Source of the DNA: an uncultured Saprospirales bacterium
GTDB lineage: Bacteria; Bacteroidota; Bacteroidia; Chitinophagales; Saprospiraceae
Length of the DNA stretch: 45,290 nt
NCBI GenBank assembly: GCA_937899855.1
Contig: CALCCH010000560.1
Coordinates: 1-45,290 of the forward strand
Direction of reading: 5' to 3'
The notes under the pieces were generated by a model. That model made no database searches. It was not told where the DNA came from and saw only the letters and a program-made list of their open reading frames with translations. Positions 2,080 to 43,100 of the stretch are shown piece by piece. A program made the position numbers and the translations under genes. Position 1 is the stretch's first letter, and the number at the start of each line of letters is the position of its first letter.

Positions 2080-2096
2080 ATCAAAATTCATAGTAA

Positions 2097-2130
2097 CGGA
2101 GCCCCGAAATACCTCGGGGTTCCGTTTCTT
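2097..2130 (+). terminator. Hairpin plus T-rich tail after the large-subunit gene
   Basis: An 11-bp stem, CGGAGCCCCGA (2097-2107) with TCGGGGTTCCG (2114-2124), contains one G-T wobble and has a 6-nt loop. TTTCTT follows. It lies 18 nt after the large-subunit stop and 13 nt before the protease ATG. It looks like a Rho-independent terminator but sits inside an apparent operon. It may therefore be a partial terminator or a 3' stabiliser that keeps structural-subunit mRNA in excess over maturation mRNA. That role is an inference. Confidence 0.7.
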
Positions 2131-2142
2131 AACGCGGCGATC

Positions 2143-2637: not shown

Positions 2638-2640
2638 CCC

Positions 2641-3009: not shown

Positions 3010-3016
3010 TCCTAAA

Positions 3017-4835: not shown

Positions 4836-4841
4836 ACATAG

Positions 4842-5225: not shown

Positions 5226-5228
5226 GTC

Positions 5229-5954: not shown

Positions 5955-5962
5955 AGACAGCA

Positions 5963-8591: not shown

Positions 8592-8603
8592 AACAACAAG
8601 ATT

Positions 8604-9716: not shown

Positions 9717-9718
9717 TG

Positions 9719-13999: not shown

Positions 14000-14844
14000 C
14001 AGTACGAAGTCTTGAACTACAATTTTCGGATCCCGGTGCCGCTGTCCTTACCCCCGATAGGGCAAGCGATGCAAAGGCGCGGGTGGTTGGGGCGTAGCCG
14101 AAGACCGAGCTGATGAAGGACGTCAAGTCAAATGTTTATCCTAAGATGGGATCAAATATCGGGCTATTCGATCCGGGGGAACGGACCGGGTCGGTCCGCT
14201 TGATATATACAATACGACCAATACAAGCCAAACGCGGCGCCATAAGTTTCGCATACACCGTACTGGTCCAAAAATAAATCGCGGCAAGACTTTACCAGGA
14301 GGGCTGGAGCCTCCCGAAATCATTATTAATGTGGAGGTCCCCACTAATATAGAGCCTTAACATTAGTTTCGAATACCACGCAAAGTGGAGCCGCTGGCAA
14401 AATTTTTTGAATGCTAAATTGGCGACATTGTGGTTTTATTCCTAAATTAGGGTGTTGTTAGTTCTGAACAACCAAAGATACTGCCCTTTATCTCAATATT
14501 CTGCCAGCCGCTAAGTTTGCTTTTTCAAGAGCGGCTTCAACAAAATCACACGTAGTAGCTAAAATTGTCAAAACACGTCTGAGTACGGAACGGTAAGTCC
14601 GGTGCTCAAACGAATCTTACTGTCATTGACCCAACAAATGTTGCGCTCGTGCAGTGCAACCCTAACTGCTTACCTAAGGCTTAACTGTAATCGCCGGGAT
14701 TGATCCCCCCCAATCATTCCCTGATCCGTTGACGCCACGATCCGTTCGTCGTCTCCCAATCCAGTACCACCGGTACTGCTGGGATGTTTATGCCCCAACG
14801 CTAGGCCTTACTTTACTATTGATAAATTGTCTAACTGCTGTCGT
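14000..14844. other. Gene-free region of about 0.85 kb with short inverted repeats
   Basis: No convincing reading frame, tRNA or insertion-sequence end was found on either strand. It is more AT-rich than both flanks, especially 14400-14600. Two short perfect inverted repeats occur: CGGACCG GGT CGGTCCG (14182-14198) and CAGTACC ACC GGTACTG (14762-14778). It separates the plus-strand hydrogenase block and the EAD-like remnant from the giant surface protein. The promoter of the latter should lie here, but no complete Bacteroidota promoter was located with confidence. Confidence 0.55.
14762..14778. repeat. 7-bp perfect inverted repeat upstream of the giant surface-protein gene
   Basis: CAGTACC and GGTACTG are separated by ACC, 66 bp before the ATG at 14845. 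It could be an operator or a small RNA hairpin. There is no T run, so it is not a typical terminator. Confidence 0.4.
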
Positions 14845-23660: not shown

Positions 23661-26600
23661 GAGGACGATCTGGGCATCATTGCCTTCCTCGATCCGCAGG
23701 AGGCTTGCGATTTGGGGAATGGCGAAAGGGTGAAGGTGGTGGTCCAAAATTACGGTGGGCTGTCGCAAAGTGGTTTTGATCTGGCTTACCGGATCGGTAC
23801 GGCCGCGCCGGTGGTGGAAAATGCGGGGAGCTTATTGGTCCAACCCGGTGATACGGCGCATTATATCTTTGCCACCCCCGCCGATCTGTCGGCCTTTCAG
23901 GTGTACCAGTTGGAAGCCTATACCCTGCTGACGGGCGACCTCAACCCCGCCACGGACAGCTTTAGCACCAGCCTGCAAAATTACCAAACCCCCGCCGTGG
24001 TGAGCAACATGCTGCCCGCCGATGGGGCCCTCGACATCGATCCCCCGGTCAACTTTTCCTGGTTGCCCGCGGCCGGTGCCCTTCGCTACGACCTCTACCT
24101 CTGGGAAGACGGACAGCCCGAACCCACCGTGCCCCTGGGCCAGGACCTCACCCAGATTACCTTTGCCTACAGCAGCAACAGCTTTATCTTCGGCGCCACC
24201 TACAACTGGAAGATCGTAGCCAAAAATGATTTTTGCGAAACCGAAGGCCCCACCCAGTCCTTCACCCTCCGCGAGCTGCCCGACCTGGTAGTCAACAACG
24301 TTCAAACCATCGCGTCGCCCTTCTCCGGGCAAACGATCGAGGTGACCTGGGAAGTGGAAAACCAAGCGATCGGCTCCACCGGAATGACCCAGTGGTTCGA
24401 CTACCTCTACCTCTCGGCCGACAATGTCTACCAACCCAACGTGGATACTTACCTCGGGGGCTTTGCCAACCTGACCGCCCTCAACTCCATGGAGCGCTAT
24501 TCCCAGATGCAGCTGGTGACCCTGCCCCAGGGCATCCAGGGCGATTTTTACCTCTTCGTGGTCACCGATCGGACCAACCAACTGATCGAAGGCTTTGAGG
24601 ACAATAATGTCGGCACGCCCGCCAACCTCCTCATCAACCTGACCCCACCGGCCGATCTGGTCGTATCCTCCATCATTGCGCCGAACAATGCCTTTTCCGG
24701 CAGCGATATCGACGTGACCTGGACGGTGACCAATCAGGGCCTGGGCGATATCGTCAGCGGTACGCACCGCGACTACATCTTCGTCAGTCAGGAATCCAGC
24801 TACGACCCCGCCACGGCCATTCTGCTGGCCAGCGAGCCCGAATCGAGTGCCCTGGTGGCGGGAGCTTCCTACACCGATACGCGCAGCGTGACCTTACCAG
24901 CCTCGGTCTTTGGCGATTACTTTATCCACGTGTACACCGACTTCCAAAACCGGGTCTACGAGTACGTCTTTGAAGACAACAACGACGAAACCAGCGATAC
25001 CCTCAACGTCATCCTCACCCCACCACCGGATTTGCAGGTCAGCAACATTAGCGTCCCCGATTCGATGGACAACCGGGAGACGATTACCGTCCAGTGGGTC
25101 AATGTCAACCTTGGCGCCACGCCGGCCACGGAGACCTTTAGCGATCGGATCTACATCAGTACCCACGATAGCTTCGACCCGGATTCGGTACAGTTGCTGC
25201 GAACGATCAGTACTTCGGTGGACCTCAACCCCGGTCAGTTTCTCAATCGTTCGACGACCGTCAACGTTCCCAACGAACGTTGTGATACCCAGTACTTTTA
25301 CGTCTTTACCGATTACAACACCCGTGTCTTTGAGCACACCAGCGAGGACAATAACATCAGTCGCAGTGGGGCGGTCATCGCGCGAACGGCGGACGTGGTG
25401 GTCAGCCAGATCAGCCTGGCGGATACGGTCCAATCGGGCGAAACGATTACCCTACAGTGGACGGTGACCAACCAGGGCTTGGGAGATGTGGTCAACTTCA
25501 ACCGGACCGATGGTATTTTTCTATCCACCGATCCCGTACCCAATCCGGCTACGGATGTGAGTCTGGGGAATTTGTCCTACGGGGGCATCCTGGAGGCCGG
25601 ACAGGGGACGAACAAACAATTGGACGTTACCCTACCGAATGGCATCAGTGGTCGCTACTACTTCCACCTGCGCACCGATACGGGGGACGACATTTTTGAG
25701 AAGGATCAGGAGGGCAACAACTCGACGACCGACTCCAGTACGGTCCAACTCGCACCCTGGCCCGACCTCCGGGTGGACGCACTGCTGGGCTTGCCCGATA
25801 CGGCGGAAGCGGGGGAGATCCTCCACTTAGATTACATCGTGCGCAATTACGGAACGGCCGGCGTGGCCGGGACGGGAAGTTGGGAGGATCGCATTTTCAT
25901 TTCCCCCAACCCGGTTTGGAATCCTACCGATGCGGTCGCCCTCCAGACCCGCGACATTCTTCAGCCCCTAGCGCCGGGCGGCAGCTACACCGAACAGACG
26001 AGTTTTGTACTGCCGATGCTCGGTGGCGGTGCGGCGACGGGCGTGTGCTTTATCTACGTCTTTGCCGACGTCAGCAACGATATTTTTGAAAATACCGACG
26101 AGGGCAACAACGTACTACGCAGCAATCCGATCAACGTCTCGGCACCCGACCCGGTCGACTTTGCCATCCTCAGTGCGACCTCCCTACCGGATACCCTCTC
26201 GTCCGGGGAGCTGGTCAACCTGCAATGGATGGTCCAGAACCAGGGGAATACGACGGCCCTGTGGGCTTACCCCCTCTGGTACGACGGCATCTACCTCAGC
26301 CTGGATTCGATCCTGGACCGGAGCAACGACCTCTTCGTGGTGGATTATACCCGCCAGGGGCCCTTGGCCAATCTGGAACTGTACAGCAACAACCAAGACT
26401 TTAACCTGCCCAACGGCATCGAAGGCGATTACTACGTCTTCCTCGTGGCCGATCATACCGAGGTGACCAACGACGCAACCCCCGATAACAGCGTACGCCT
26501 GATTCGACCCAGCAGTCATCCCAGTGGTGCGGCGCGGCCCATCCACATCGAGCTTACCCCCTCGCCCGACCTGCAGGTCTCGACCCTGGTGGCGCCCGCC

Positions 26601-28271
26601 GCCGCAACGGCCGGGCAGCCCATTCAGGTGATCTGGACGGTCGACAATCTGGGGCTGGGCAGTACCGTGGGCACTTGGACCGATAAAATCTACCTCTCTA
26701 CCGATTTTGACATCGACAATGACGATCCGATCATCGGTACGGAAAACCAAATGCGGACCATCCTGCCCGGTGGCAGCTACACCGATACGCTGGAGGTCTT
26801 TATCCCGATCGACGCGGTGGGCAACTTCGTGCTCATCCTCCGGACGGATGCGAACAATGCCCTCTTTGAATTGAACGGGGAGGACAACAATACCTTCTTC
26901 AATTTTATCACCACCAGCTTGCCCCTGCCTTCGGACCTGATCGTCAACAACCTGAGTTTTGATTCCATGGCGATGGTGGGCGAGGCCTTCGTGGTCAATT
27001 ACGAGCTGTTCAACCAGGGCCTCAACCCGGCGGCCGGGGTGATGAGTGACTTGGTTTACCTCTCTACCGATTCGCTGCTCGACGTCTCGGACGTGAAGCA
27101 CATCGGGCCGGTACAGCGCAACATCAATCTGGCGCCCAACGCGAGTCTGAGCCTGAGTCCTTCGGACCGTACCCCCGGGGTGCCGCTGGGCGAATACTTC
27201 GTGATCGTACAGACCGATATCCTGAACAACATTTTTGAAAACAGCGATACCAACAACGTTACCATTTCGAGTCAGAAGGTGACCATCTCGGTGGCCGAAT
27301 TGCCATTGGACGTCGTATTGCAAAAAACCTTGTTCAACAACGAGGGCATCTACTACCGCATCGAGATTCCCGATAGCCTGAGTGGCGAAACCATGCTGGT
27401 GACCCTCGACGCCCTGGGGACGCAGGGGATCAACGAACTGTTCCTGAGCTACGGCCAAGTGCCCACCCGCTCGGTACACGACTTTGCCTTCTCCGACCCC
27501 TTCGCCCCGGATCAGGAAATCATCGTTCCCGAGCTCCAGGCCGGTACCTACTACCTGCTGGGCTACGGGGTCAATGACGGGGCGGCCCAGCAGCAGACCG
27601 TGGACTTTAAGGCCGAGATCATCCCCTTCCAGATTCGCAACGTCGAGGCGACGACGGGGGGCAATACCGGCAATGTAACGCTCAAGATCGAGGGGGCCAA
27701 GTTTACGCCCGACATGGACTTGGAACTCTTTAAGGCGGCCTTGGGTGGGGTGTCGGCGCACCGGCTCACCTACATCAATTCGACCAAAGTCTTCGCCACT
27801 TTCAACCTGGCCGGTGCCAGCCTGGGGGTATACGATCTGATTGGCACCAAGCCGACCGAAACGGCCCTGCTGGCGGATGGTTTTGAGGTGGTGGATGGTG
27901 GTGCGGGTACGACCACGGGCAGCGGTGGCGGTGGCTTTTTCTGCAACATCGTCAACGTGGGCTCGGAAGACAATTTGAGTAAAAACTTCCAACATCCCGC
28001 TCAGGTTCGGGTCAATCGGCTGGTTCCGATTACGATCCAGTTTGGCAACAATGGCAACTCGGACATTCCCTGTCCCTTCCGCTGGTTGCTGAGTATGCGC
28101 GGGGCTCCCCTGTCTTTTGATCCCGATGCGGTGGAGGAAGGGGCGGAGGAATTGTACATCGAGTTTCAGGAGCCGGGTGGCCCGCCGGGTGTACTCCGGC
28201 CGGGGGCGACGAGTGCGGTGACGGTGTATTCTTACTCTTCGCGTCCCTTGCGCTTTATTTTGAAAGAGTGA
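16176..28271 (+). CDS. Giant secreted beta-helix/CARDB repeat protein, main part (after frameshift)
   Basis: This 4,031-codon frame continues the signal-peptide-bearing part that starts at 14845. It completes beta-helix unit 1 and holds units 2-5, each a right-handed beta-helix followed by an Ig/CARDB-like domain and closing with a PDIGADEF-type sequence. After 23660 come another Ig-like domain, a fibronectin-like domain (SWLPAAGALRYDLYLWEDG), and eight CARDB-like domains (24280-27300). A PPC-like domain, an IPT-like domain (VTLKIEGAKFTPDMDLELF) and a short Cys-containing end follow. Many Asp and Asn suggest calcium-stabilised repeats. The end (RFILKE) shows no T9SS sorting domain or anchor. 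It is probably a surface adhesin or matrix protein. The annotated ATG 16176 is internal; the true start is 14845. Confidence 0.85.
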   Translation: MTLEASGTSFSRVISMIGGVNHLRLENNVIRSSSTTSTSTNRSLVYFTTNTVNEFLHVSHNVFQNGSGGLYFNGPTNNNNYLAGLEVLDNEFVNQYAFGMYLVYHTGALIDGNRFEVGGTYNSYRGIHLFRNYGSPRITTNQMYLPFGYRGILLDEVYGSVADPVLVANNFVSVDGTSTSYGIYSEDGTYQNIFHNTVRVGSTSLGSRPFMVTSGNNKVVFNNILANYGGGLAFYTNTPSAIGSSDYNDLYTTGPNLGFWSGNQADLDTWRTNSGQDLNSLSTDPLFADPTNYVVREILLNAAALPTPQVLGDIEGELRDASPDIGADEWTPPNSDAFLVQFQQPEAPFPVGNQSVAVLLKNNGTDSLFTADIDWAFNGSVQSPFNWSGTLGSGDTTTVAIGSMAFVVNQDYALRAWVSNPNGGVDAVPDNDTTLVENLYVALGGNYTLGGLSPDFNTFGEAVTNLTMGGVVDSVIFDVRDGTYNEQLVFTPILGAGADKSVRFQSELGDSTAVTLTFDSPSSANYTIYLNGVDHLSFARMTLAATDANYGRIIHLDGASNRIRLENNRLLGVPATSTSTNRALIYSTSGFVNDSLQLYHNYLQNGSYGLYFRASTSHVSGTEVVGNTFENQYYRAMDMDEHNRPVINDNLIQTNSASTDYTGIYSNDSNLGAEVRRNRVLANAYGAGMRFFDMTGTIANQAWIANNYVEIGANQGNTVYGIFFSSGSYHQLHYNSVRVTSTGLNASALYFSGGSNKRLSNNIWSNYGGGLAFFTSSTGNVLSSDFNNFFTPGPNFLSWGGTLWPTLSDWQNAGNLTEVNSISVPPFFRAPNDYRTAQSALNGAANPLPEVLIDLEGEVRDSLQPDIGADEFDLPATDAGVSAVLIPDIPFPIGNQLIQAILRNHGSDTLRSVTINWTVNGTPQAPINWTGTLLGSDTLRLDLNSVNFALNQAYELRAWTSSPNGGADPIAVNDTAGVDNLYAGLTGTYTIGGVSPDFSDFSNAANVLNIGGVVGPVTFNVRDGVYEEQIWLREFPGSDSLRQVLFQSESGDSTAVTLRFALGSSNNYLVLHDGTQWVRWRQLGFESASSLYQRLMVFSNGAGHIDLEQNFLRGPATTSTTTLRALVYMPNSNLIENLRLRNNRFVGGSHGIYLLGNTNGGNYAGGIEVDGNSFTDHYYRAMYLGGLRTAKVRNNTFLSNSNYSNIRGFEIANSYFGLEMTGNRVSGQNTGIGIFLDDVYGTVDQTVLLANNFVQVGGTNTVQGIYVDRGNYQKIYHNSVNLTNTNSNSYAYFANSGSNRQVYNNIFANVGGGRTYYTNSTTGSLQSDHNDLYTTGPTLGFYGSTTYADLATWQSGANRDTNSVSIDPLFVSDTDLHVTNVLLDKLGLGVAEVPVDIDGEARDPARPDLGADEFFTATEDASLVSIDSPVMPFAADLQSVFVTVVNNGLDTLESLELYWEVNGVVQAPFNWTGNLLSGETADSVNLGNFTFELDTAYTIRAWTANPNGLPDLENFNDTTEVSNLYAALGGEYTLGGSNPNFISFNHAATSLANGGVIAPVTFNVRNGTYEEQVSFGAVLGADATNTITFQSEQGDSSAVLLRYGNTTNTTNYVLQLDGADYFRFRQLSLESTSSVYSRVIFLFNGASYNEWTGNIVTGPNLTSTGTNQALVYSTSTDDEYNVFRYNRFVEGSYGIYLIGTNTANTERGTVIEYNDFRGQYYMGIRFLYQDAPRVSYNTIVGNSVYCCSYYGVYTNSCQNDWTYLGNTLTDIDHGFGFYFTNTDGSPTARGLLANNFVSVGQGASRASYGIYLTASDYNDIYYNSVRVESSNGSSRAFFLAGNETRVKNNIFANFNQGHAYYKQSGNNLETDFNALYAPQATLAYWDGSNATDLSTWRSLSGGAANSRSSDPAFVSPTDLHVDDVDLNNTGIPLASVSVDYDGEARDPLTPDIGADEFTPITTNDAEVLAILSPQPTVPFAAGVQDVVVEIKNNGADTLLQVNIDWTANGLPQLPYSWTGFLEPGERDTVTLGSFNFNLGFSNNLLVVSSQPNGQADNNTSNDTIQVQDLYPALLGTYTIGGSFPDFPSFSAAATSLNNGGILGPVTFQVRNGTYNEQLILGSIRGSGPANPILFQAENGQSDFVRLEHQNSNVSNYVVRLDGTDYITLQNLTLRSLGVFARIISLNNGANNVSILNNQLIAAGDDNDELIYSQNDTDQNLLIQGNRFVDGGSGVFLFGQNTSQLESGTRILDNVFENQTRYGIYLYYHDAPLVLDNQITTNTTRSQYHGIFMQHCDRDFRVERNRIIGGRGYGIQANRCDANLNERARIANNFIQVGGTNVAYGIYVFSGQFINFYHNSVHLTNTDPNSRVFYNSSGANKNVLNNVFANSGGGLAYYAATSLASSNFNDLYTTGPSLGYWLGTTVSDLSAWRALSGRDFNSVSANPLFYSDNDLQALQVALDSAATSVSGLTIDIDGEARDATFPDIGADEFDFLEDDLGIIAFLDPQEACDLGNGERVKVVVQNYGGLSQSGFDLAYRIGTAAPVVENAGSLLVQPGDTAHYIFATPADLSAFQVYQLEAYTLLTGDLNPATDSFSTSLQNYQTPAVVSNMLPADGALDIDPPVNFSWLPAAGALRYDLYLWEDGQPEPTVPLGQDLTQITFAYSSNSFIFGATYNWKIVAKNDFCETEGPTQSFTLRELPDLVVNNVQTIASPFSGQTIEVTWEVENQAIGSTGMTQWFDYLYLSADNVYQPNVDTYLGGFANLTALNSMERYSQMQLVTLPQGIQGDFYLFVVTDRTNQLIEGFEDNNVGTPANLLINLTPPADLVVSSIIAPNNAFSGSDIDVTWTVTNQGLGDIVSGTHRDYIFVSQESSYDPATAILLASEPESSALVAGASYTDTRSVTLPASVFGDYFIHVYTDFQNRVYEYVFEDNNDETSDTLNVILTPPPDLQVSNISVPDSMDNRETITVQWVNVNLGATPATETFSDRIYISTHDSFDPDSVQLLRTISTSVDLNPGQFLNRSTTVNVPNERCDTQYFYVFTDYNTRVFEHTSEDNNISRSGAVIARTADVVVSQISLADTVQSGETITLQWTVTNQGLGDVVNFNRTDGIFLSTDPVPNPATDVSLGNLSYGGILEAGQGTNKQLDVTLPNGISGRYYFHLRTDTGDDIFEKDQEGNNSTTDSSTVQLAPWPDLRVDALLGLPDTAEAGEILHLDYIVRNYGTAGVAGTGSWEDRIFISPNPVWNPTDAVALQTRDILQPLAPGGSYTEQTSFVLPMLGGGAATGVCFIYVFADVSNDIFENTDEGNNVLRSNPINVSAPDPVDFAILSATSLPDTLSSGELVNLQWMVQNQGNTTALWAYPLWYDGIYLSLDSILDRSNDLFVVDYTRQGPLANLELYSNNQDFNLPNGIEGDYYVFLVADHTEVTNDATPDNSVRLIRPSSHPSGAARPIHIELTPSPDLQVSTLVAPAAATAGQPIQVIWTVDNLGLGSTVGTWTDKIYLSTDFDIDNDDPIIGTENQMRTILPGGSYTDTLEVFIPIDAVGNFVLILRTDANNALFELNGEDNNTFFNFITTSLPLPSDLIVNNLSFDSMAMVGEAFVVNYELFNQGLNPAAGVMSDLVYLSTDSLLDVSDVKHIGPVQRNINLAPNASLSLSPSDRTPGVPLGEYFVIVQTDILNNIFENSDTNNVTISSQKVTISVAELPLDVVLQKTLFNNEGIYYRIEIPDSLSGETMLVTLDALGTQGINELFLSYGQVPTRSVHDFAFSDPFAPDQEIIVPELQAGTYYLLGYGVNDGAAQQQTVDFKAEIIPFQIRNVEATTGGNTGNVTLKIEGAKFTPDMDLELFKAALGGVSAHRLTYINSTKVFATFNLAGASLGVYDLIGTKPTETALLADGFEVVDGGAGTTTGSGGGGFFCNIVNVGSEDNLSKNFQHPAQVRVNRLVPITIQFGNNGNSDIPCPFRWLLSMRGAPLSFDPDAVEEGAEELYIEFQEPGGPPGVLRPGATSAVTVYSYSSRPLRFILKE
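24280..27300 (+). repeat. Eight tandem CARDB-like domains
   Basis: Eight copies of about 125 residues each begin with a (P/A/S)DL-V-type strand and a block such as ITLQWTVTNQGLG. They contain D-x-(I/L)(Y/F)(L/I)S and end with a VFEDNN or IFENTDEGNN sequence. These are Ig-like beta sandwiches used as rigid stalks in surface proteins; the DNN/EGNN ends may bind calcium. Confidence 0.85.
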
Positions 28272-28299: not shown

Positions 28300-31200
28300 A
28301 TGAGAAAAAAAATTCGCATGCTTCAGTTTAAAAAGATTGTATCGCTGCTGGTATTGGTGCTGTTGGGCACCGCCCTGCTGGCGCAGAAGAACATCACCAA
28401 GCCCAACGTGACTGGCCCCAACGGGGTGAGCGTCAATACTTACACGGGGGGCTTGTTCCACCAGCGGCAGGACTTGATGATTCCCGGTCGGGGTTTGTCG
28501 ATCGACCTGACTTTTAGCTATAATACCGTCAGTCGGGAACGCGACTGGGGCATGGGGCGGGGTTGGACTTTCAACTACAACATGGCCTACCGCTTCGACA
28601 GTCTCGACGTGGTGATTGAGCACATGGATGGGAGTCGCAACCGCTACGTACCGAATGGTTCGGGGGGCTGGTCCTGTCCGGCGGGTGTTTTTGATTCGCT
28701 TGAGCAGTACCAAGTAAATCAGTTTCTGCTGACGCGCAAGGATGGGATGAAGTACTACTTTGACGATGCCAGCCACCGCAAGTTGACCCGACTCGAAGAC
28801 CGCAACGGCAACACCATTTCGCTGGCCTACACCGATTCTCTGTTGACCACCATCACCGATCCTTCCGGTCGTCAGGTCATGCTGAGTTGGACCGACGGTC
28901 GGCTCCGTAAGATCACCGATCCGAACTGGAGTGGGGGGCGGGAAATCCAGTACACTTACGACGTACAGGGCAATCCGACCAGCGTTCGCGATGCCCTGTC
29001 GAATCTGACGGAATACACGTACGACAACCAGTTTCGCATCACGGCCATCATCAACAAAAACGGGAGCCCGGTCAATATTACGTACAACTTTTTGGATGCC
29101 GTGCGGGAGATCATTTCGTGCGTGGGCAAGCAAACCTTGACCTACAACTACGAAAAACTCAAGACCTATCTGGTGGAGGAGATCGAGGGGAAAAAGCAAA
29201 TTACCACGTATCAGTTTAACGAAGCGGGGCAGGTTATCCAACAGTCGGGCAACTGCTGTGGCTTTAACGTGAAATTTGAGTACGACGCGCGCAACAACAT
29301 CACCAAACGGATTGATGCCAATGACAACGCCACCTCCTTTGTGTACGACGATCGAGGGAATGTGCTCCAGGAAATCGATCCGCTGGGAAATGCGATGATT
29401 CGATCGTACGAGCCCGTTTTTAATAAAATGACGAGTGAGCGAGACCGCAATGGCAACCTCACCCAGTACCTCTACGACCCCAATGGCAACCTACTGCGGG
29501 TCAACCACCCCCTGGACATTAGCGAGGTCTACACCTACGACGCATTTGGCAACCTCACTTCGTTTACCGACGGTCGTGGCAACATCAATACGTACACCTA
29601 CGACGTCAACGGGCAGTTGTTGACTTTTCTGGATCCCGCGGGTGGGGTAACGAGTTTTGCTTACGATGGAGTGAGCAACAATACCTCCTTTACGGTACCT
29701 AATGGACACACCACTCAGGTGACTTTTGACCTGCTCAATCGCCCGACGAGTTATACCAATGCCCTCAATGAAAAGATTGAATTTACCTACGATGCGGAGG
29801 GGAACGAACTTACCTCAAAGGACGCCAATGGCAACCTGACCAGTCGCACTTACGATGCCCTCAATCGCCTAATTGAGACGGCTGATCCCCTGGGTAATTC
29901 TTATTCGTACGAATACGACCAGCGGGACAATTTGATCGCGATGGTCGATCCGCTGGGGCAGGCTTATCGCTACGAGTACAATAACCTGGGCCGTTTGGAA
30001 AGGGAGATCAATCCACTGGGCGAACTTACCCTCTACGAATACGATGGAGTCGGCAACCTCATCACCCTCCTGCAAGCCGGGGGGAATACGATCAACATCA
30101 CCTACGATATTCTAAATCGACCCACCTCGCTGATCGATGAGTTGGGTACCATCGCGGCCTATACCTACGATGAAAATTCGAATCGACTGATGCTGTCCGA
30201 TGGCAACGGCAACGTGATCCGCTACGAGTACGATGCCCTCAATCGGAATACCAAGTTGACCGATCCTCTAGGCCGTTCGATTCTGTACACCTACGACGAC
30301 AACGACAACCTGACCCAAATCATTGACCGCAAAGGCGATCCAAGCAACTTTGCTTACGACGCGCTGGATCGACGAGTGGGCAGTACCGATCCGCTGGGCA
30401 ACACCATCAGTTACGGCTACGATGCCAATGACAATTTTACCAGCCTTACTGACGCCCGCGGTAATGCCACGGTCTATACCTACGATGCGGCCAATCGAAT
30501 CGTCAACGAACGCTACCCCGACAATCAGCAGCGTGGTTTTTCGTACGATGCGGCGGGTAACCTTCGCCAAATCACCGAACCCAACGGGGATCAGATCAAC
30601 TACGGCTACGATGCCACCAACCGGATCATTAGCCGGAGCATCCCCGGAGAAGCCAACGAGACCTTTACCTACGACGCCAAAGGACAGCTGACCAGTGCGA
30701 CCAATGCCAATGCGACGGTTTTGCTTACCTACGATCCCGTAGACCGGATGACCAGCGAGCGTTTGAACGGAAAGGTTACCAGTTATCAATACAATACGCC
30801 CGGACGGACCAAGGTCGTCAGCTACCCCAACGGGAAGCTATTTACCGAAACCTTCGACCTCCGCGGGCGACTGGTGAGTGTGGTCGATAACGCCACCCAG
30901 GAGGTCCTGACCACTTACGCTTTTGATGAAGGCAACCGCAAGGTCGGGCAGTCCAATCTCAATGGCACCAGCAGCACCACTGCTTACGATGACAATTCCA
31001 ACGTCATCGGGGTGGGGCACTTGCTGAGTGGGTCGACCAAAGAATGGGAATACGGCCACAACAACAATGACAACAATATCTTCGAACGCAACCTGCACCG
31101 GCCCACCCGCTCCCGTCAGTTTGTTTACGATGACTACAATCGCCTGTTGGAATTTAAACGAGGGACACTCAATGGGGCGGTTATCAATGCACCAAACAAG

Positions 31201-32448
31201 TCGGTAGCTTATGCTTACGATGGTGCCAACAACCGCACGGCCCTCACCGTGGACGCTAACCCCACCAACTATACGACCAACAACCTCAACCAGTACACGG
31301 CCCTGACTGGTAGCGGTGCGGCGACCCTGAGTTACGGCGCCAATGGCAATCTGGAAAACGACGGAGTCTACACCTACGGTTACGACTACGCCAACCGCTT
31401 GGCGGAGGTGGATAATGGCAGTACGGCCCGGTACCTATACGATGCCTTGGAGCGACGAATTGCCAAGGTCATTGGTACCGATACGACGTTTTATTTCTAC
31501 TCCATGCTGCGTCTGGTGGAGGAGCAAAACGCGCTCGGTGCTACGGAAGCCCTTTACGTATACGGTGTAGACAGTGACGAGGTCCTGCTCTCCGAAAAGG
31601 GCAGCAGCCGTTATTTTTACCACCACAACGCGATTGGATCGACGGTCCTGCTCTCCGACGACAGCGGACAGTTGGTCGAGCAGTACGATTACGATGCCTA
31701 CGGGGCGGTCAGTTTCTTTGATGCGGCCGATAGCCCGCTGGTCAGTTCGGCGGTGGGCAATCCGATCCTGTTTACGGGGCAGTATTACGATACGGAAGTG
31801 GGGCTTTATTATTTCCGGGCCCGACATTATGCGCCTGCCCTCGGCCGGTTTTTACAACGCGACCCCTTGGATTATGCCGATGGCCCCTCGCTTTACGAGT
31901 ATACCTTTAGCAATCCCACCAACTGGATTGATCCGCTGGGGCTGAGTAGCAATCCCTGCGACAAGCCCTGGTGGGAAGACTGTGTGGTGGGTGGGGCCTT
32001 GGGGGCCCTGGGTGGTTTGGTGACGGGTGGCCCCGTGGGGGCTGTGGCCGGAGGTGCGATTGGCTGCGTGAGTTCTACGGTATTTGGGACCAATCCGCTC
32101 GATGACATCCGCAATGGTGATTACTTTGGGGCGGCGGTGAATACGGGATTGAACTTTATCCCCGGGGGGATAGGTGGACGGGCGGCCCGCAATGGCAGTC
32201 AGTTTTTGCGCAAGGCCTTTGGCCCTGCCAAGCAGTGGTTACGGGTGGGTCCTTCCTACAGTAAGGCATTGGGACAGGGCATTTCCAAGTCCATTCGCTG
32301 GGGCGCCTCACCGGCGAAAAAGGGAAAATACATCAAGCAGATTGGCAGTCCCCGACTACAGCGTTTTAACCAGTGGTTGCGGAGTAAAAAATTACCCTTT
32401 GGGGGTTGGCGCTCGGCGGACCCTGGACATTTTCACCTCAAAAAGTAA
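28300..32448 (+). CDS. Secreted RHS/YD-repeat protein with variable C-terminal tip (candidate polymorphic toxin)
   Basis: A 1,382-residue protein with a signal peptide (hydrophobic run ending LLA-Q near residue 28; ATG 28318 is an alternative start). The segment GPNGVSVNTYTGGLFHQRQD and PGRGLSIDLTFSYN is the usual N-terminal RHS lead. Residues about 150-1080 are many YD repeats (YDxxGN, YDALNR). The RHS-associated core follows (HHNAIGSTVLL, YDYDAYG, GQYYDTEVGLYYFRARHYAP, GRFLQRDPLD) and ends at DPLGL, residues 1211-1215. The last 167 residues contain a Gly/Ala-rich segment and a basic tip ending SADPGHFHLKK, a possible nuclease-type end that I cannot assign. The candidate immunity gene follows after 13 bp. 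Confidence 0.92.
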   Translation: MRKKIRMLQFKKIVSLLVLVLLGTALLAQKNITKPNVTGPNGVSVNTYTGGLFHQRQDLMIPGRGLSIDLTFSYNTVSRERDWGMGRGWTFNYNMAYRFDSLDVVIEHMDGSRNRYVPNGSGGWSCPAGVFDSLEQYQVNQFLLTRKDGMKYYFDDASHRKLTRLEDRNGNTISLAYTDSLLTTITDPSGRQVMLSWTDGRLRKITDPNWSGGREIQYTYDVQGNPTSVRDALSNLTEYTYDNQFRITAIINKNGSPVNITYNFLDAVREIISCVGKQTLTYNYEKLKTYLVEEIEGKKQITTYQFNEAGQVIQQSGNCCGFNVKFEYDARNNITKRIDANDNATSFVYDDRGNVLQEIDPLGNAMIRSYEPVFNKMTSERDRNGNLTQYLYDPNGNLLRVNHPLDISEVYTYDAFGNLTSFTDGRGNINTYTYDVNGQLLTFLDPAGGVTSFAYDGVSNNTSFTVPNGHTTQVTFDLLNRPTSYTNALNEKIEFTYDAEGNELTSKDANGNLTSRTYDALNRLIETADPLGNSYSYEYDQRDNLIAMVDPLGQAYRYEYNNLGRLEREINPLGELTLYEYDGVGNLITLLQAGGNTINITYDILNRPTSLIDELGTIAAYTYDENSNRLMLSDGNGNVIRYEYDALNRNTKLTDPLGRSILYTYDDNDNLTQIIDRKGDPSNFAYDALDRRVGSTDPLGNTISYGYDANDNFTSLTDARGNATVYTYDAANRIVNERYPDNQQRGFSYDAAGNLRQITEPNGDQINYGYDATNRIISRSIPGEANETFTYDAKGQLTSATNANATVLLTYDPVDRMTSERLNGKVTSYQYNTPGRTKVVSYPNGKLFTETFDLRGRLVSVVDNATQEVLTTYAFDEGNRKVGQSNLNGTSSTTAYDDNSNVIGVGHLLSGSTKEWEYGHNNNDNNIFERNLHRPTRSRQFVYDDYNRLLEFKRGTLNGAVINAPNKSVAYAYDGANNRTALTVDANPTNYTTNNLNQYTALTGSGAATLSYGANGNLENDGVYTYGYDYANRLAEVDNGSTARYLYDALERRIAKVIGTDTTFYFYSMLRLVEEQNALGATEALYVYGVDSDEVLLSEKGSSRYFYHHNAIGSTVLLSDDSGQLVEQYDYDAYGAVSFFDAADSPLVSSAVGNPILFTGQYYDTEVGLYYFRARHYAPALGRFLQRDPLDYADGPSLYEYTFSNPTNWIDPLGLSSNPCDKPWWEDCVVGGALGALGGLVTGGPVGAVAGGAIGCVSSTVFGTNPLDDIRNGDYFGAAVNTGLNFIPGGIGGRAARNGSQFLRKAFGPAKQWLRVGPSYSKALGQGISKSIRWGASPAKKGKYIKQIGSPRLQRFNQWLRSKKLPFGGWRSADPGHFHLKK

Positions 32449-32461
32449 TTGGAAAAGCGAT

Positions 32462-33040
32462 ATGGGAAAAATTAATTTAGGAAGCGGCGTAGTGTGGACG
32501 GATTCGGCCTTCTTGGACCGAAAGCGGGAAGGCGACCTGTTGGATACTCCCTGGACCCGGGCCCTGCAAGCACTATCGGAGGAGAAGGACCTGATCCCGG
32601 AGGGAGCGGTCTGCTACCTCCACGGGATGGGGGCCCAAGTCAAGTCCACTTACGCCAGCCTTCCTCCCTCGGCGGACTACGAACTGCAGTGGTACGATTC
32701 CGTGCTGACGGGCTGGTGGCGGCCGCTCCGCCACGTGATGGCCAGCTACGAGGGTTTAATCAAAATCAAGGCATCAAAATCGATTTTACCCCTGTTCGAA
32801 AAGGTCGTGGAAAATTCCATGGCGGGGCTGTTTATCTTTTCCGCCGCTGACGAAGGTGACTTTGTACAAGCCGTGACCAAAGACCGGGATGCCAGTCGGG
32901 CGGATGCCATCGTCAAGCGCAGCGATCATTTCCTCTGCTATTACATCGATGCGGACAACGAGGAATCCGACACTGGCCGGTACGAAATCTTATCGTACGG
33001 GATCAATTGTAAAGCATCAATCAAGAACATTTGGAGCTAA
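32462..33040 (+). CDS. Candidate immunity protein for the adjacent RHS tip
   Basis: A 192-residue soluble protein without signal peptide, starting MGKINLGSGVVWTDSAF. It is rich in Asp, Glu and aromatic residues (VLTGWWRPLRHVMASYEG, LFIFSAADEGDFVQAV). I do not recognise the family. The role is inferred from position: it starts 13 bp after the RHS stop on the same strand, is cytosolic, and is the only gene between the RHS protein and the next secreted protein. The frame is open upstream to 32174, inside the RHS gene, but ATG 32462 is the first sensible start. The next gene starts 17 bp later. Confidence 0.65.
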   Translation: MGKINLGSGVVWTDSAFLDRKREGDLLDTPWTRALQALSEEKDLIPEGAVCYLHGMGAQVKSTYASLPPSADYELQWYDSVLTGWWRPLRHVMASYEGLIKIKASKSILPLFEKVVENSMAGLFIFSAADEGDFVQAVTKDRDASRADAIVKRSDHFLCYYIDADNEESDTGRYEILSYGINCKASIKNIWS

Positions 33041-33057: not shown

Positions 33058-34788
33058 ATGTTTAGGCAAGTTTTGTACCTCATCTTATTTTTGCTGCCCA
33101 GCGGCACCCTCTTCGCCCAAGACCCCTGCGGTGGCGGAGACGACCGCGGTGACTTTGGCTGCTCTCTACTCTCCTTCATCGGGCTCAAGGAGGAAGGCGA
33201 CGAATTCAACATTCCCCGCGTCCACGCCGTCGACCCCAACGAAATCTCGGGCCCCATCGGCTACGATACCGCCCAGTGGGTAAGCATCAACGACGACCTG
33301 GGTTATACCATCTTCTACGAAAACGATCCGGTCTTCGCTACCGCCCCCGCCCAAATCGTCGAAATTCGCATGCCCGTTGAGCCCGACCTCAACATCTTCT
33401 CCGTCCGGCTGGGCGAATTTGGCTTTGGCTTTTTTAATTTCGACGTTCCGGAGAATACAACCTTTTACAAAAATCGCCTCGACGTGGTCGATTCGCTCGA
33501 CGTACTGGTCGACGTTACCGCCGGTATCGATGTGGTGAGCAAGGAAGTCTTCTGGATTTTTGAATCCATCGACCCCCTCACCGGCCTGCCCCCCGAAGAT
33601 GCCCTCACCGGTTACCTCCCCGTCAACGATACCACCACGCTCTACAACGATACCCTCCCCAAACGCGGCGAGGGCTACGTCACCTTTACCATTCAACCCA
33701 AAAATACCCTGCTCACCGGCGATACCGTCACGACTCAGGCCGCCATCATCTTCGACATCAACGCCCCCCTCATCACCAATACCTGGACCAACCTGGTCGA
33801 CGCCTTTGGTCCGGTCAGTCAAATCGATACGGTCTTTCAAAACGGAGATGATTACCGCTTGATCTGGAGTGGGGTCGACGATGTCGGTGGGGTAGGCATT
33901 GAGTACTACGACCTCTACGTCGCCCAGGACGCGGGGCCTTTCTTGCTTTACCAAAGCGAAATCGACACCACCGTTTTGGAATTCCCCGGGGTGCCGGGTT
34001 CGACCTACGCCTTTTACGTCCGCTCGATCGACCACGTGGGCAACCGCGAAGCGGAAAAAACCGAAGCTGATCCCTACGTTACCATTACCAATAGCATCAA
34101 GGTGTTGGCCAAGGTCTTTCTCGAAGGGCCCTACGATGGCAATACGGGCTTGATGCGCGACCTACTCCGAGCCAACGACCTCCTGCCCACGGGCGAGCCC
34201 TTTACCGCACTCGGTTTTACCCACGTCGATGGCGGGGGCAACGAGGTGGTGAGCGCTGCCGTCTTCGATACCACCGGTCAGGACGCGATCGTGGATTGGG
34301 TCTTTCTCGAACTGCGCTCGCCGACCCAGTCGGACTCGGTGGTGGCTACGCGTGCTGCCCTGGTCCAAGCCGATGGCGACATCGTCGATCTCGATGGCCA
34401 GTCGGCGGTAGGCTTTAGCGGCAAGGCCGTCGGGGAGTACTACCTGGCCATTCGGCACCGCAACCACCTGGGGGTACGAACGGCCGATCGGGTTATGTTG
34501 AATGGGACCCCGGGAACACTGCTCGACTTTACGGCCCTTGGCTTCAACACCTTCGGCATCGATGCCCAAACGGAACTGGCGGGCGTCCGCGCCCTCTATT
34601 CGGGCAATGCCAATCACGATAGCCAGGTCAACGCCGTGGACAAAAACCTCTACTGGCGCGTCCAAAACGGGCAGACCTTTGACTACCTGATTTTTACGGC
34701 CGACTTCAACATGGATGGGGCGGTCAATGCCGTGGATAAGAACCTCTACTGGCGGATCAATAACTCGATTACCCAGCAACTCGATTAA
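33058..34788 (+). CDS. Secreted protein with giant-CARDB-type C-terminal module and dockerin-like repeats
   Basis: A 576-residue exported protein with signal peptide MFRQVLYLILFLLPSGTLFA before Gln. Residues about 55-240 carry the DPNEISGPIGYD, LGYTIFYENDP and FATAPAQIVEIRMP block. In other Bacteroidota and cyanobacteria this domain (I think DUF7619, name from memory) occurs near the C-terminus of giant CARDB proteins. A fibronectin-like domain (about 255-345) follows, then an ELR-rich domain. The C-terminus has two dockerin-like, possibly Ca-binding repeats: NANHDSQVNAVDKNLYWR and DFNMDGAVNAVDKNLYWR. There is no T9SS domain. It may be a detached module of the upstream giant protein, separated by the RHS/immunity pair. 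Confidence 0.85.
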   Translation: MFRQVLYLILFLLPSGTLFAQDPCGGGDDRGDFGCSLLSFIGLKEEGDEFNIPRVHAVDPNEISGPIGYDTAQWVSINDDLGYTIFYENDPVFATAPAQIVEIRMPVEPDLNIFSVRLGEFGFGFFNFDVPENTTFYKNRLDVVDSLDVLVDVTAGIDVVSKEVFWIFESIDPLTGLPPEDALTGYLPVNDTTTLYNDTLPKRGEGYVTFTIQPKNTLLTGDTVTTQAAIIFDINAPLITNTWTNLVDAFGPVSQIDTVFQNGDDYRLIWSGVDDVGGVGIEYYDLYVAQDAGPFLLYQSEIDTTVLEFPGVPGSTYAFYVRSIDHVGNREAEKTEADPYVTITNSIKVLAKVFLEGPYDGNTGLMRDLLRANDLLPTGEPFTALGFTHVDGGGNEVVSAAVFDTTGQDAIVDWVFLELRSPTQSDSVVATRAALVQADGDIVDLDGQSAVGFSGKAVGEYYLAIRHRNHLGVRTADRVMLNGTPGTLLDFTALGFNTFGIDAQTELAGVRALYSGNANHDSQVNAVDKNLYWRVQNGQTFDYLIFTADFNMDGAVNAVDKNLYWRINNSITQQLD

Positions 34789-36972: not shown

Positions 36973-37172
36973 GGAGTAAAAATAGCCATTCAAAAGCAGC
37001 TTTTTTGCATCCATTTGGGGGCGATCCCCAGGGATTGGGTCCCGCTGCCTTTTGGGAAGGGCCGGGAGCGGGCCCTTGGGGTGTCACAGACATATTTTTT
37101 TGTGTAATGTATGGCATCCTATTTGTTGGGGGAAGAGAAGGAGAAACGATTTACCCACAAAACCCCCCTACC

Positions 37173-40100
37173 GTGAAAAAAGGATTAAATACCTACCCCT
37201 TCCTCTTCCTACTTTTTAGTTTATTCCTCCCCGATCAAGGCGCACTGGCCCAATGCAGCGGCGGACTGAGTCAATTCTCGGCCTGTTATGGCGATAACGA
37301 GGCGGATCTGGTACTGTTTGAAATTTGTCCCTCCGCGGGTACGGCCATTCGCGCCACCGTCGAACGGGGCAGTTTTGGTACCATTGATGGCGTCGATAAC
37401 CTCACCGTCTACGAAGGGGGCTCTAGCTCCGGTACTTCGGGTACGATTTACTTCGGCCCCCAGAGTGGTGACTTTGCGGGGACCCTGATCACGGGAAGTA
37501 CGAACCAGTGTTTGATTTTTGTGAGCAATAGCAACGGCACTGTAAGCTGTACCAACCTCGTCGAGCGGGAGCTGATCGTTTGCGCCGAAGAAGTGCCCTC
37601 GGGAACGGTTGATTTTACCGGTCCCACCGAAATTTGCATCAACGCCGGCGTACAAATCGGACTCGCCGGTGGTTACCCCCGTGGCGGTACTTACAGCGGC
37701 CCCGGGGTCAACGATAACGGAAACGGAACGACCTACAGCTTCGATCCCGCCATTGCCGGGGTAGGAGTCCATACCCTGAGTTACCAGGGCCCCGGTGGCG
37801 CCATCGCCACCTACGACATTGAAGTATTTGCCTTGCCCGGCCCCAGCTTCACCGCTCCGGCCGACCTCTGTATCGACGCCGGCATCCAAACCGGCCTCGG
37901 CGGCGGTAGCCCCAGCGGTGGCGTCTACAGCGGACCCGGCGTCAGCGACGATGGCAATGGCAGTACCTATTCCTTTAATCCCGGCGTGGCTGGCCTCGGC
38001 GTCCATACCATCACCTACACCGAGGGCAGCGTCTGTGCCCTTACTGCCATCGACAACATCGAAGTACTGGCGGCCTGTGGCTGTCCGACGGGCCAGGATT
38101 CCTACTTCCACTGCTACGACAACAACGAGAGCGACCTGGTCATCTTCGAAGTCTGCCCCAGTGTCGGCTCCGCGGCCCAGGCAACGATCGATCAGGGCGT
38201 TTACGCCTCCTTTATCGATAACCTGACGGTATACCAGGGCACCAGTGGCTCGGGTAGCGGCGGAACCCTCCTGTATGGTCCCGCCAGTGGCGATCTGTCG
38301 GGAACGACCATCACCGGCAACGTGGCGGATCAGTGTTTGATTTTTGTGAGCAACACTGATCCTCTCGTGAGTTGTAAGGATGGGGACGCAGTGGGTTTGG
38401 AGGTTTGTGGGGAAGACATCAGTCCCTTCGTCGTGTTTACCGCTCCGGATGATCTATGCGAGGATGCTGGCGTCCAGACGGGCTTGGGCGGCGGTAGCCC
38501 GACCGGTGGGGTCTACAGTGGCCCCGGGGTGACCGATGATGGCAATGGCCTGACCTACGGCTTTGATCCCGCCGCCGCGGGGACGGGCACCCAGACGATC
38601 ACCTACACCAATGGCAGTGCGGCCAGTGACGACGTGGAAGTATTTGCCTTGGTCGTTCCGGTGTACAATGCTCCGGGAAGTATCTGTATCGACGAAGGCA
38701 TTCAGGAGAACCTCGGTGGGGGTTTTCCCACCGGTGGGGTGTACAGTGGCCTCGGGGTCAGCGATGATGGCAACGGACTCACCTACCGCTTTTATCCCCG
38801 GGTGGTGGGAATCGGCAGCCATACCGTGACCTACACCGATGGCAATTGTGGCAGCTCGGACAGCGATCAGATTGTGGTGACGGCGGCTTGTACCTGCCCC
38901 AGTGGGGAGCAGAGTTTTTACCACTGTTACACCGACAACGAAAGCGATTTGGTGATCTTCGAAGTTTGTCCCAGTGCGGGAGAATTTGCCCAGGCGGAAA
39001 TTACCCAGGGCACTTACCTGTCCGCCGATCGCCTGTCGGTATACGCGGGTGCTACGGGCTCCGGCACCGGTGGAACCCTGGTCTTTGGTCCCCAAAATGG
39101 GAACCTGGCGGGAACCATCATCAGTGGTACCATCGCTGATCAGTGCTTGATTTTTGTCAGCAATAGCGATGCGGTTTTGAGTTGTGCCACGGGCATCCAA
39201 TTGCCCTTGTTGGTGTGCGGTCGGAGCAATGCGTCCAACGTAACCTTTACGGCACCCGAGGACTTGGCGATCAGTGCGGGCATCCAATCGGGCCTGGGCG
39301 GTGGTTTGCCGACGGGAGGGGTATACAGCGGCTCCGGAGTGACGGATGACGGGAATGGCCTGACCTACAGCTTTGATCCTACCGTGGCGGGGCTGGGTGT
39401 CCAAACCCTGACCTACACCGTTGGCGCTTTCTCGGCCAGCGATGATGTGGAGGTCTTGAACCTCGCGCCCCCCAGTTTTTCCAAGAGCTTCAACCCTATC
39501 CAGACCGGTGTGGGGGCGGTCAGTACGCTGACCTTTACGATCGACAACGCTTCGGGCGGGGCCCCGGCCACCAGCTTGGCCTTTACCGATAACCTCCCGG
39601 CGGGCATGACGGTTGCCAATCCCCCCAACCTACAGTTGTCCAATATTTCGGGAACGGTGACGGCAACGGCGGGCGCCTCAAGCATCAGCTTGAGCGATGG
39701 CATCCTGCCCCTCGGAATCACCGGCACCATCAGCGTCGACGTCACCAGCAGCAGTGCCGGTACCCTGGCCAATACCACCGGCGATTTGACCTCCAGCAAT
39801 GGCAACAGTGGAACGGCCTCGGCCAATCTCATCGTATCGACCGACCGCCCCGGGGTGAGCATGAGCTTTTCCCCCAGTACCGTCAATCTGGGGGAACGCA
39901 GTACCCTCACCATCACGATCGACAATGCCACGAACAGCGGCAACCTGATTGGCATTACCATGACCAACAACCTGCCGGCTGGCCTGGAAATCGCCTCCCC
40001 CGCCAACCTCAGCGCCACCAATACCGGTATCGGTACCCTGACGGGAGTGGCGGGTACCCAATTGTTTTCCTACAATACCACGGGCTTTACCCAGGAGATT

Positions 40101-43100
40101 GCGGCCAATGGCTCCTGTACCTTTTCGGTAGACGTGGTGCCCAGTGGCTCCGGTACCATCGTCAACTCGACCGAGGCGATAACCGTCCGCAATAACTTTT
40201 TCCAATTCTTTGAATGTGGAAAAGCCACCGCGGCCCTGACGGTCAATACCCCGACCCAGGTGTTCTTACAAAAGACCTTTTCGACCAACCCCGTGCTTCC
40301 GGGCGGGACCACCACCCTCGATTATACCATCACCAACCTGAGTCGTGACTTTAGTGCCACCAACATCAGCTTTACCGACGATCTGGATGCGGTGCTGACG
40401 GGCTTGGTGGCTACCGGCACCCCCCTGAGCAACGTTTGCGGTACGGGGGCCAGCCTCAGCGGTACCAGTACCCTGACTTTGAGTGGGGGCACCCTGGCTG
40501 CGGGTGCGAGCTGTACCTTTAGCGTACCGGTAACCGTACCCGGTGGCGCCACTACGGGCGCTTACCCCAGTACGAGTAGTGCCATTACCGCCACCTCAAA
40601 CGGGGCCGCCGTAACGGGCAATACCGGTACGGCCGAACTTTTCGTGGCCCCCGTCCCGACCTTTACCAAGACCTTCCTGCAAAACCCCATTCCCGCCGGT
40701 GGAACGGCGACTTTGGAGTTTACGATTACCAACAATAGCACCACCAACACCCTCGAATCCGTCACCTTTACCGATCCGATCGCCGATTTCCTCTCGGGGG
40801 CTACGGTGACCAACCTGCCAGCGGGCAATTCCTGCGGGACTGGCTCCACTTTCTTTACGTCGACCGTCGCGGGGGAACTGGTGTTCCAGGTCAACGGTGC
40901 GAACATCGCGCCCAGCGGCTCCTGTACGTTTACCATCGACCTCGCCATTCCCGATAACGTACCCACCGGAACGTATAACAACACGACGAGCGAACTCTTG
41001 GGCTCCATCGGAGGTCAAACGGTGTCGGCGCTCGCCGCAACGGATGATCTGGAAATCCTGGCGATACCACGCCTGAGCAAAGCCTTCCTCAACGATCCAG
41101 TGGATGCGGGCAGTACGGTCAACCTAGAATTTACCCTCAGCTACGATGCCTTCGCCACCGGCAATGCCACGGGCGTCGCCTTCACCGACGACCTCAACGC
41201 CGTCATCCCCGGGCTGGCCGCCGTCGGCCTCCCCCTCAACGACATCTGCGGGACCGGCTCCTCGATCAGCGGGACGACCAACCTGACCTTTACCGGTGGC
41301 ACCATGGCCCCGGGCGACGTGTGTACCTTTACCGTGCCGGTACAGGTACCCGTCGGGGTGAGTCCCGGCTCCTACACCAATACCACCAGTAGCCTCAGTG
41401 CTACCGTGGGGGGACAAGCCGCTACCTACAGCCCGGCCACGGACGATCTCGACATCGGTGGCCTCAGCGTGACCCAAGAATTTATTGGTGATCCCGCCAT
41501 TCCGGGCGAGCTGGTCACCCTACGTTACACCATCGACAACACCTCCACCTTCGATGCCACCAATATCGTTTTTACGGAAAACCTCACTTCCATACTCTCC
41601 AGTGCCACCGTCGAAGCTCCCCCCACCGCCGCTTGCGGGGGCTCCTTCATCGCCAGTGGGAACACCTTCCTGATCCTAAACGGTGCAGCGGTGACGGCGG
41701 GCTCCAGCTGTAGTTTTGACCTAAACCTGCGCGTACCCAGCTCGGCGACCAGTGGCACTTACAATGGCGTCACCAGCACTGTTAGTGCCACCATCAATGG
41801 CAGTGGCACCACCTTCAGCGCCGTGACCGACCAACTGGTGGTCGATAAAGAGCTGATCCAATTGACCAAAAGCTTTACCGACGATCCCGTACTGCCCGGT
41901 AGCAACGTGACTTTGGAATACACCCTGACCAACTTGAGTAGCACCGCTGCCCTGACCAACGTCGCCTTTACCGACGACCTCGATGCCGTACTCAGCGGCC
42001 TGGCCGCAACGGGGCTGCCCCAAAATGACATCTGTGGGACGGGCTCCCAAATCAGCGGGACCAGCACCGTCAGCTTTAGCGGTGGCAACCTGAGTCCCGG
42101 CGCCAGTTGTACCTTTAGCATTACGGTGCAGGTTCCGGGAAGTGTGGCCTTCGGTAGCGTCCTGAGCAGCACGACGAGTACCGTTACGGGTACCGTCAGT
42201 AGCCTGAGCGTCGAAGGGACTGCCGCCAGCGATGAGCTACGGATTCAGGCCATTCAGTTTGACAAAACCATCACCGGTCCCGTACAAACAGGAAACATTG
42301 CGTCGATCACCTATACAATCACCACCAGCGACCCCAGCAATGCGGTATCCGACCTGGCCTTTACCGATGACCTGGAAGCCTGGATCAGTGGCTTGACCAC
42401 GGTCAATTTGCCCCTGGACGATGCTTGTGGATTGGGGGCCCGGGCCAGCGGCAGCTCCGTCGTGACCCTCGGACGGGGGGAATTGGCGGCCGGTACTTCC
42501 TGTAATTTTGACGTTCAGGTTCAGATTCCTTGTGGGATTGCCGCCGGTACCTACGCCAGTCCGAGTAGTACCCTCAGTGGTTTGTTTGGATCGGGCTCGA
42601 CCAGCGCTACGGCGGCCGCCACCAACCTGACGGTCAATGCCATCGGCACCAGCTTTACGGCGCCGAGTGACCTTTGTACCGACGATGGTATCCAAAACGG
42701 TTTGGGGGGCGGTAGTCCCAGTGGTGGGGTCTACAGTGGCTCGGGGGTCACCGATGATGGCAATGGCTCGACCTACTCCTTTGACCCCAGTGCCGTTGGG
42801 GAGGGCATTTTCACGATCACCTACACCGAAGCCACTTGTGGCGAGGTGGCCAGTGATGAAATCGTCGTCATCGCGGTACCGACCGCACCGAGTACCACTG
42901 GCGAGATGATCGAACGCACCGATCCGGTGGTGACGGGGCTGACCGCAACGGTGGCGGATTGTATCGTGACGCCCAGTCAGTCGGGCACTACTTCGCTGAC
43001 AATTAATACCAGCAATTTGGCTAGCGTCAACTTTAGTTTTGGGTCGGACAACGTGGTCAATTTTGACATGAGCGCCGCGGGTATTCCGGCCGGAGCCGTA

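What the first reader, a model, noticed from the sequence alone, without database searches (positions are those of the whole stretch)
31930..33040. RHS protein with unassigned toxin-like tip and adjacent unknown candidate immunity protein
The 167 residues after DPLGL end in a basic tip with GHFHLKK, a possible catalytic His pair, and a 192-residue cytosolic protein of unknown family follows after 13 bp. This is the layout of polymorphic toxin-immunity pairs. The RHS protein carries a Sec signal and sits among surface-protein genes, so delivery would differ from T6SS-type RHS toxins. This is the best candidate here for an undescribed effector pair.
Basis: partly seen in the sequence, partly recalled or inferred. 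Interest (0 to 1): 0.62.

Follow-up and report, generated by a model that had tools for sequence, protein, structure and literature searches.

The report
New RHS toxin tip with immunity gene
A bacterial surface protein ends in a small, strongly basic, undescribed toxin-like domain followed by a matching protector gene; the same two-gene cassette turns up on an unrelated RHS protein in another phylum, so it is very probably a real, transferable toxin-immunity pair of a family that the searched databases do not contain.

Summary
The RHS ORF (28300-32448, 1382 aa) ends in a 167-aa tip after DPLGL; 13 bp later comes a 192-aa ORF (32462-33040). Neither the toxin-like end nor the second protein matched Pfam, NCBIfam, PHROGs, PADLOC or PDB sequences. 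The toxin-immunity reading is well supported by comparison. The last 77 residues (32215-32445; pI 11.8) recur at 73% identity on an unrelated RHS end in Peristeroidobacter (Gammaproteobacteria), again followed (9 bp) by a homologue of the 192-aa protein (33%, E 2e-26). Ten loci from window-family genomes keep the RHS body but carry other tips and no such gene; in two of them the DUF7619 gene that follows the cassette here comes directly after RHS. Tip plus gene are therefore one inserted cassette. In Flavobacterium the same tip is followed by a different small protein; a second Flavobacterium keeps only the last ~29 tip residues before a relative of that protein. Enzyme activity, binding and delivery route are untested; a cytosolic nuclease, most likely an RNase, is my best guess. 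New toxin and immunity families within a well-known kind of system.

The parts
28300..31944 (+). RHS/YD-repeat delivery body with Sec-like signal peptide; DUF6531, 25 RHS repeats, Rhs_assc_core ending in RDPLDYADG...DPLGL
   Evidence: body conserved in 10 loci of family genomes with other tips
31945..32214 (+). 90-aa linker / pre-toxin region with a glycine-zipper-like hydrophobic stretch (CVVGGALGALGGLVTGGPVGAVAGGAIGC), possible membrane-crossing segment
   Evidence: weak, below cut-off Gly-zipper matches, hydropathy 1.54; not shared with relatives; role inferred
32215..32445 (+). 77-aa toxin-like domain, pI 11.8; conserved KQWxRxGPSxSxA, SIRWGASP, WRxxDPGHxHL
   Evidence: 73% identical in Peristeroidobacter, 51% in Flavobacterium humi, 29-residue remnant in another Flavobacterium
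32462..33040 (+). cognate immunity protein candidate (192 aa, acidic, cytosolic), conserved Y..DAD..ES.TG..EI.S.G; predicted beta-alpha-beta central region
   Evidence: homologue follows the same tip in Peristeroidobacter; homologue in an RHS-tip graveyard in a family genome; model pLDDT 65
33058..34788 (+). secreted DUF7619 protein (with a sub-threshold dockerin-like C-terminus); conserved partner of this RHS body, separate or fused
   Evidence: follows RHS directly in L041 and L043, fused to RHS in L042, L045, L048

Best explanation
This is an exchangeable polymorphic toxin-immunity cassette inserted at the 3' end of a Sec-exported RHS gene. The RHS body (export is shown only by its signal peptide) is inferred to enclose and carry the C-terminal tip and to release it by cleavage at the conserved DPLGL end. 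The glycine-zipper-like linker is inferred to help the tip cross a membrane of a neighbouring cell. The 77-residue basic domain is inferred to act in the cytosol as a small nuclease, most likely a metal-independent RNase using the invariant His pair of DPGHxHL and conserved Arg/Lys/Trp. The acidic, cytosolic 192-aa protein is inferred to bind and block it in the producer and its kin. Shown here: the domain boundaries, co-transfer of the pair between phyla, replacement of the cassette on a conserved RHS body, and remnants of displaced cassettes. Inferred: toxicity, nuclease chemistry, binding, delivery. The confidence given is for the toxin-immunity cassette reading; for nuclease it is about 0.6, for RNase about 0.45.
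For: Same tip (73%) plus homologous downstream gene (33%, E 2e-26) on an unrelated RHS end in another phylum. RHS body relatives (best 41% over 1214 residues) in 10 fetched loci of family genomes, all with different tips and none with a P0002 homologue; in two the DUF7619 gene directly follows RHS, by 18 or 52 bp. Flavobacterium humi: same tip, 3 bp, then a different small protein; a second Flavobacterium keeps a short tip end right before a homologue of that protein (42%, E 3e-23). P0002 homologue in another genome of the family in a graveyard of RHS tip remnants. Tip pI 11.8 with 17 K/R and 1 D/E; P0002 pI 5.0, no signal peptide. Fits the published rule that toxin tip and immunity gene are swapped together (PMC3482391).
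Against: No experiment and no complex model. The tip structure prediction failed (pLDDT 44.7), so nuclease chemistry rests on composition and conserved residues only. The tip plus P0002-type pair is known from just two loci. The immunity homologues are much less conserved (33%) than the tips (73%), and one tip has another neighbour.
Confidence: 0.85

Rival explanations
1. The tip is a toxin, but not a nuclease: another cytosolic activity such as inhibition of translation by binding, or NAD or nucleotide hydrolysis.
For: No profile match to any nuclease family; fold of the tip not resolved. Unrelated RHS tips converge on non-nuclease activities, e.g. NADases (PMC10539506).
Against: 77 residues with 17 K/R and 1 D/E is small and very basic for a metabolite-acting enzyme; the conserved His pair and Arg/Trp fit a nucleic-acid-cutting domain (inference).
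Confidence: 0.33
2. The tip acts on the cell envelope (pore or wall), with the glycine-zipper-like stretch as the active part.
For: Glycine-zipper-like hydrophobic stretch in the linker.
Against: The stretch lies in the part not shared between relatives, while the transferred unit is the soluble basic domain; the partner proteins lack signal peptides and clear TM segments, so protection is cytosolic.
Confidence: 0.06
3. Not a toxin: tip and downstream gene are ordinary lineage-specific RHS sequence and an unrelated hypothetical gene that happen to be neighbours.
For: No known family, rare, untested.
Against: The same two genes are adjacent in two phyla on different RHS scaffolds, and the tip also sits before a second small acidic protein family elsewhere.
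Confidence: 0.05
4. The locus is a decayed or domesticated RHS tip, or the tip serves a non-antagonistic role (kin recognition, surface structure).
For: The neighbourhood is full of adhesin-like and T9SS-tailed surface genes; several RHS relatives have tips without an obvious immunity gene next to them.
Against: Both ORFs are intact, residues conserved across phyla are kept, and the small gene travels with the tip.
Confidence: 0.08

Closest known systems
RHS polymorphic toxins with 3' exchangeable toxin-immunity cassettes (Zhang et al. 2012, PMC3482391; Serratia Rhs1, PMC10539506)
   Same: RHS core ending in a DPxGL motif, variable C-terminal tip, adjacent small gene, replacement of tip plus gene on a conserved body, displaced remnants
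   Different: Toxin and immunity domains match no described family; no T6SS sheath protein found in this genome; the RHS body carries a Sec signal and has a DUF7619 partner
TANFOR/BaCT polymorphic toxins of Bacteroidota (PMC7073777)
   Same: Exported Bacteroidota toxin with cognate downstream gene in a neighbourhood of T9SS cargo
   Different: The carrier is RHS, not TANFOR; BaCT is a DNase family; direct comparison with BaCT was not made
BECR-fold RNase toxins (barnase/EndoU/colicin E5-D/RelE)
   Same: Small, basic, His/Arg/Lys-rich C-terminal domain with an acidic cytosolic inhibitor
   Different: No sequence match to any such Pfam/NCBIfam family or PDB chain; fold not resolved

Membership tests
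RHS polymorphic toxin system | RHS/YD repeat body with Rhs_assc_core ending in DPxGL before a variable tip | tested here: met
   PF05593 2.3e-103; TIGR03696 3.9e-22 at 1131-1215; DPLGL at 1211-1215
RHS polymorphic toxin system | Tip varies while the body is conserved among relatives | tested here: met
   10 loci of family genomes with body 27-41% identical and no tip match
RHS polymorphic toxin system | Immunity gene directly downstream that travels with the tip | tested here: met
   Window and Peristeroidobacter
RHS polymorphic toxin system | Tip is toxic and the neighbour neutralises it | not testable with these tools
   needs expression and binding assays
T6SS-delivered RHS effector | T6SS in the same genome | tested here: inconclusive
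   No VipB (PF05943) match in the own genome, 91% complete; other T6SS markers and divergent Bacteroidota sheaths not searched
Described Ntox/Tox or Imm families (Pfam, NCBIfam models) | Profile match above the curated cut-off | tested here: not met
   No match for tip core, P0002 or their relatives
BECR-fold RNase toxins | BECR fold | tested here: inconclusive
   Tip model pLDDT 44.7, too poor to judge
BaCT / TANFOR toxins | N-terminal TANFOR domain | tested here: inconclusive
   Pfam scan of the RHS protein shows only RHS-type domains; whether TANFOR is a Pfam model was not checked

The most novel reading that the evidence does not exclude
The 77-aa domain is a new fold or new catalytic family of nuclease toxin that has recruited two unrelated immunity families (the P0002 type and the Flavobacterium 118-aa type), and it is delivered by a Sec-exported RHS shell with a DUF7619 partner tied to type IX secretion instead of a T6SS.
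Probability: 0.2. Interest if true: 0.65.

Novelty: new member of a known kind. Interest (0 to 1): 0.42.

Why it matters
It adds an undescribed toxin domain and two candidate immunity families to the RHS repertoire, with defined boundaries and invariant residues, so a bench test is simple. The locus also offers a handle on an open question: how Sec-exported RHS proteins of Bacteroidota without a visible T6SS deliver toxins. In relatives the RHS body is followed by, or fused to, a DUF7619 protein, and two of the fused chains end in a tail that resembles a T9SS sorting domain.

Tried and rejected
The first genome-contig scan used a wrong reading frame and says nothing. Plasmids, phages and viral contigs gave no relatives. 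The weak tip hits in 395 own-phylum, 398 Pseudomonadota and 395 own-class genomes (E 2e-4 to 0.01) mostly cross stops or cover part of the model; the three inspected (L011, L024, L027) do not lie in RHS genes, so all are treated as chance. The AlphaFold model of the tip was unusable. Foldseek of the P0002 model gave nothing at E<=0.001; VIA-align 2 best Z 5.7 (NikR, 4.2 A over 92 residues) and many ferredoxin-like shell proteins at Z 4-5, which is background level and suggests at most a common beta-alpha-beta arrangement. An HNH/GHH nuclease was considered because of GHFH and disfavoured because the motif ends the chain, leaving no room for the helix that follows in that fold (own knowledge). 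Literature: no paper in the library joins RHS, toxin and Saprospiraceae. The other session predictors fold single chains only, so tip-P0002 binding could not be modelled.

Full report
OBSERVATION. The RHS ORF 28300-32448 (+) encodes 1382 aa with a Sec-like N-terminus, DUF6531, 25 RHS repeats and the RHS-associated core. DPLGL lies at 31930-31944; 167 residues follow, ending in DPGHFHLKK. After 13 bp an ATG at 32462 opens a 192-aa frame to 33040. All stated coordinates, lengths and spacing are correct.

DATABASES. Neither the tip nor the 192-aa protein (P0002) has a significant match in Pfam, NCBIfam, PHROGs, PADLOC or PDB sequences, nor do their relatives. The only signals in the tip are weak glycine-zipper matches in the linker.

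THE PAIR IN ANOTHER PHYLUM. A pattern-based scan of 84,980 species genomes found two tip relatives. In Peristeroidobacter agariperforans (Gammaproteobacteria) a 336-aa RHS end carries the last 77 residues at 73% identity, and 9 bp later a 187-aa ORF is homologous to P0002: 33% over 139 residues, E 2e-26. The good match starts at AFGP (window 32215), so the transferred toxin unit is taken as 32215-32445. Elsewhere the two RHS proteins share only general RHS similarity (25-39%).

A SECOND PARTNER. In Flavobacterium humi the tip (51%) ends a 1729-aa listed RHS frame and is followed 3 bp later by a 118-aa protein unrelated to P0002. In another Flavobacterium genome only the last ~29 residues of the tip survive, directly in front of a homologue of that 118-aa protein (42%, E 3e-23). 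Such a lone tip end before an intact small gene is what displaced cassettes leave behind. The 118-aa family also occurs as part of a longer protein without a visible tip in a third Flavobacterium, so its link to this tip rests on two loci.

THE CASSETTE IS INSERTED. The RHS N-terminal region was found in 11 of 198 other genomes of the window's family. In the ten loci fetched, the body aligns up to about residue 1214, that is to DPLGL, and the tip and P0002 are absent. In the closest body (L041, 41% over 1214 residues) the next gene, 18 bp away, is the homologue of the window's 33058-34788 gene (47%); in L043 likewise (52 bp, 39%). In L042, L045 and L048 that DUF7619 domain is fused to the end of the RHS protein, and in L042 and L048 the chain ends in a tail that by eye resembles a T9SS sorting domain. 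So tip plus P0002 gene lie exactly between two conserved neighbours. The same-genus genome (77% complete) had no match for the RHS body, tip or P0002. A P0002 homologue (26-27%) in another genome of the family sits in a run of RHS-tip remnants and small genes.

NATURE OF THE TWO PROTEINS. Tip core: pI 11.8, 17 K/R against 1 D/E. Invariant in the three full copies: KQW.R.GPS.S.A, SIRWGASP, WR..DPGH.HL; both His also persist in the remnant. P0002: pI 5.0, no signal peptide or clear TM segment; its Peristeroidobacter relative (pI 5.9) and the 118-aa protein (pI 5.2) are alike in this. The charge complementarity and the cytosolic protector point to a cytosolic, nucleic-acid target. P0002's model (pLDDT 65, pTM 0.67) has a plausible beta-alpha-beta centre (residues 49-139) without a trustworthy structural relative. 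The tip model failed.

MECHANISM (committed). The exported RHS shell carries the tip; the tip is released, enters a neighbour, and degrades RNA (nuclease about 60%, RNase about 45%); P0002 protects the producer. Toxicity, chemistry, binding and entry are inferred. T6SS delivery is not favoured: no VipB match in the genome, and the protein has a Sec signal; the T9SS-like neighbourhood suggests another route, unproven.

COMPARISON. The arrangement and its evolution match the polymorphic-toxin rule that one recombination at the 3' tip replaces toxin and immunity together (PMC3482391) and the Serratia Rhs loci with exchangeable tips and orphan immunity genes (PMC10539506). What is new is the families. 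The tip is rare: no further convincing copies in 395 own-phylum, 395 own-class, 398 Pseudomonadota and 150 Flavobacterium genomes apart from those named, nor in plasmids, phages and viral contigs. An oddity: the tips are 73% identical while their immunity proteins are 33% identical.

Noticed in passing
window 14827-28271: One giant secreted protein (signal peptide, beta-helix and seven CARDB matches) is split by a frameshift between about 16100 and 16176; the second frame continues the same repeat. Assembly error or real break not decided.
   Followed up: partly
window 487-10789: NiFe hydrogenase large subunit, maturation protease, and HypB-, HypF-, HypD- and HypE-like genes in a row.
   Followed up: no
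L042, L045, L048: RHS proteins fused at the C-terminus to the DUF7619 domain; in L042 and L048 the chain ends like a T9SS sorting domain, so these RHS bodies look like T9SS cargo rather than toxin carriers.
   Followed up: partly
L058 172-4763: Run of RHS-tip remnants, including a HEFGHMMG metallopeptidase-like tip followed by a small lipoprotein-like gene, ending in a P0002 homologue.
   Followed up: no
L047, RHS tip after DPYGL: Another RHS tip on the same body family with a HEMDHW metallopeptidase-like motif.
   Followed up: no
window 37005-44201: Large ORF whose end resembles a T9SS sorting domain; its true start is probably inside the listed ORF.
   Followed up: no
window 32215-33040 versus L016 4971-5777: Tip 73% identical but immunity proteins only 33% identical between the two phyla.
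   Followed up: no
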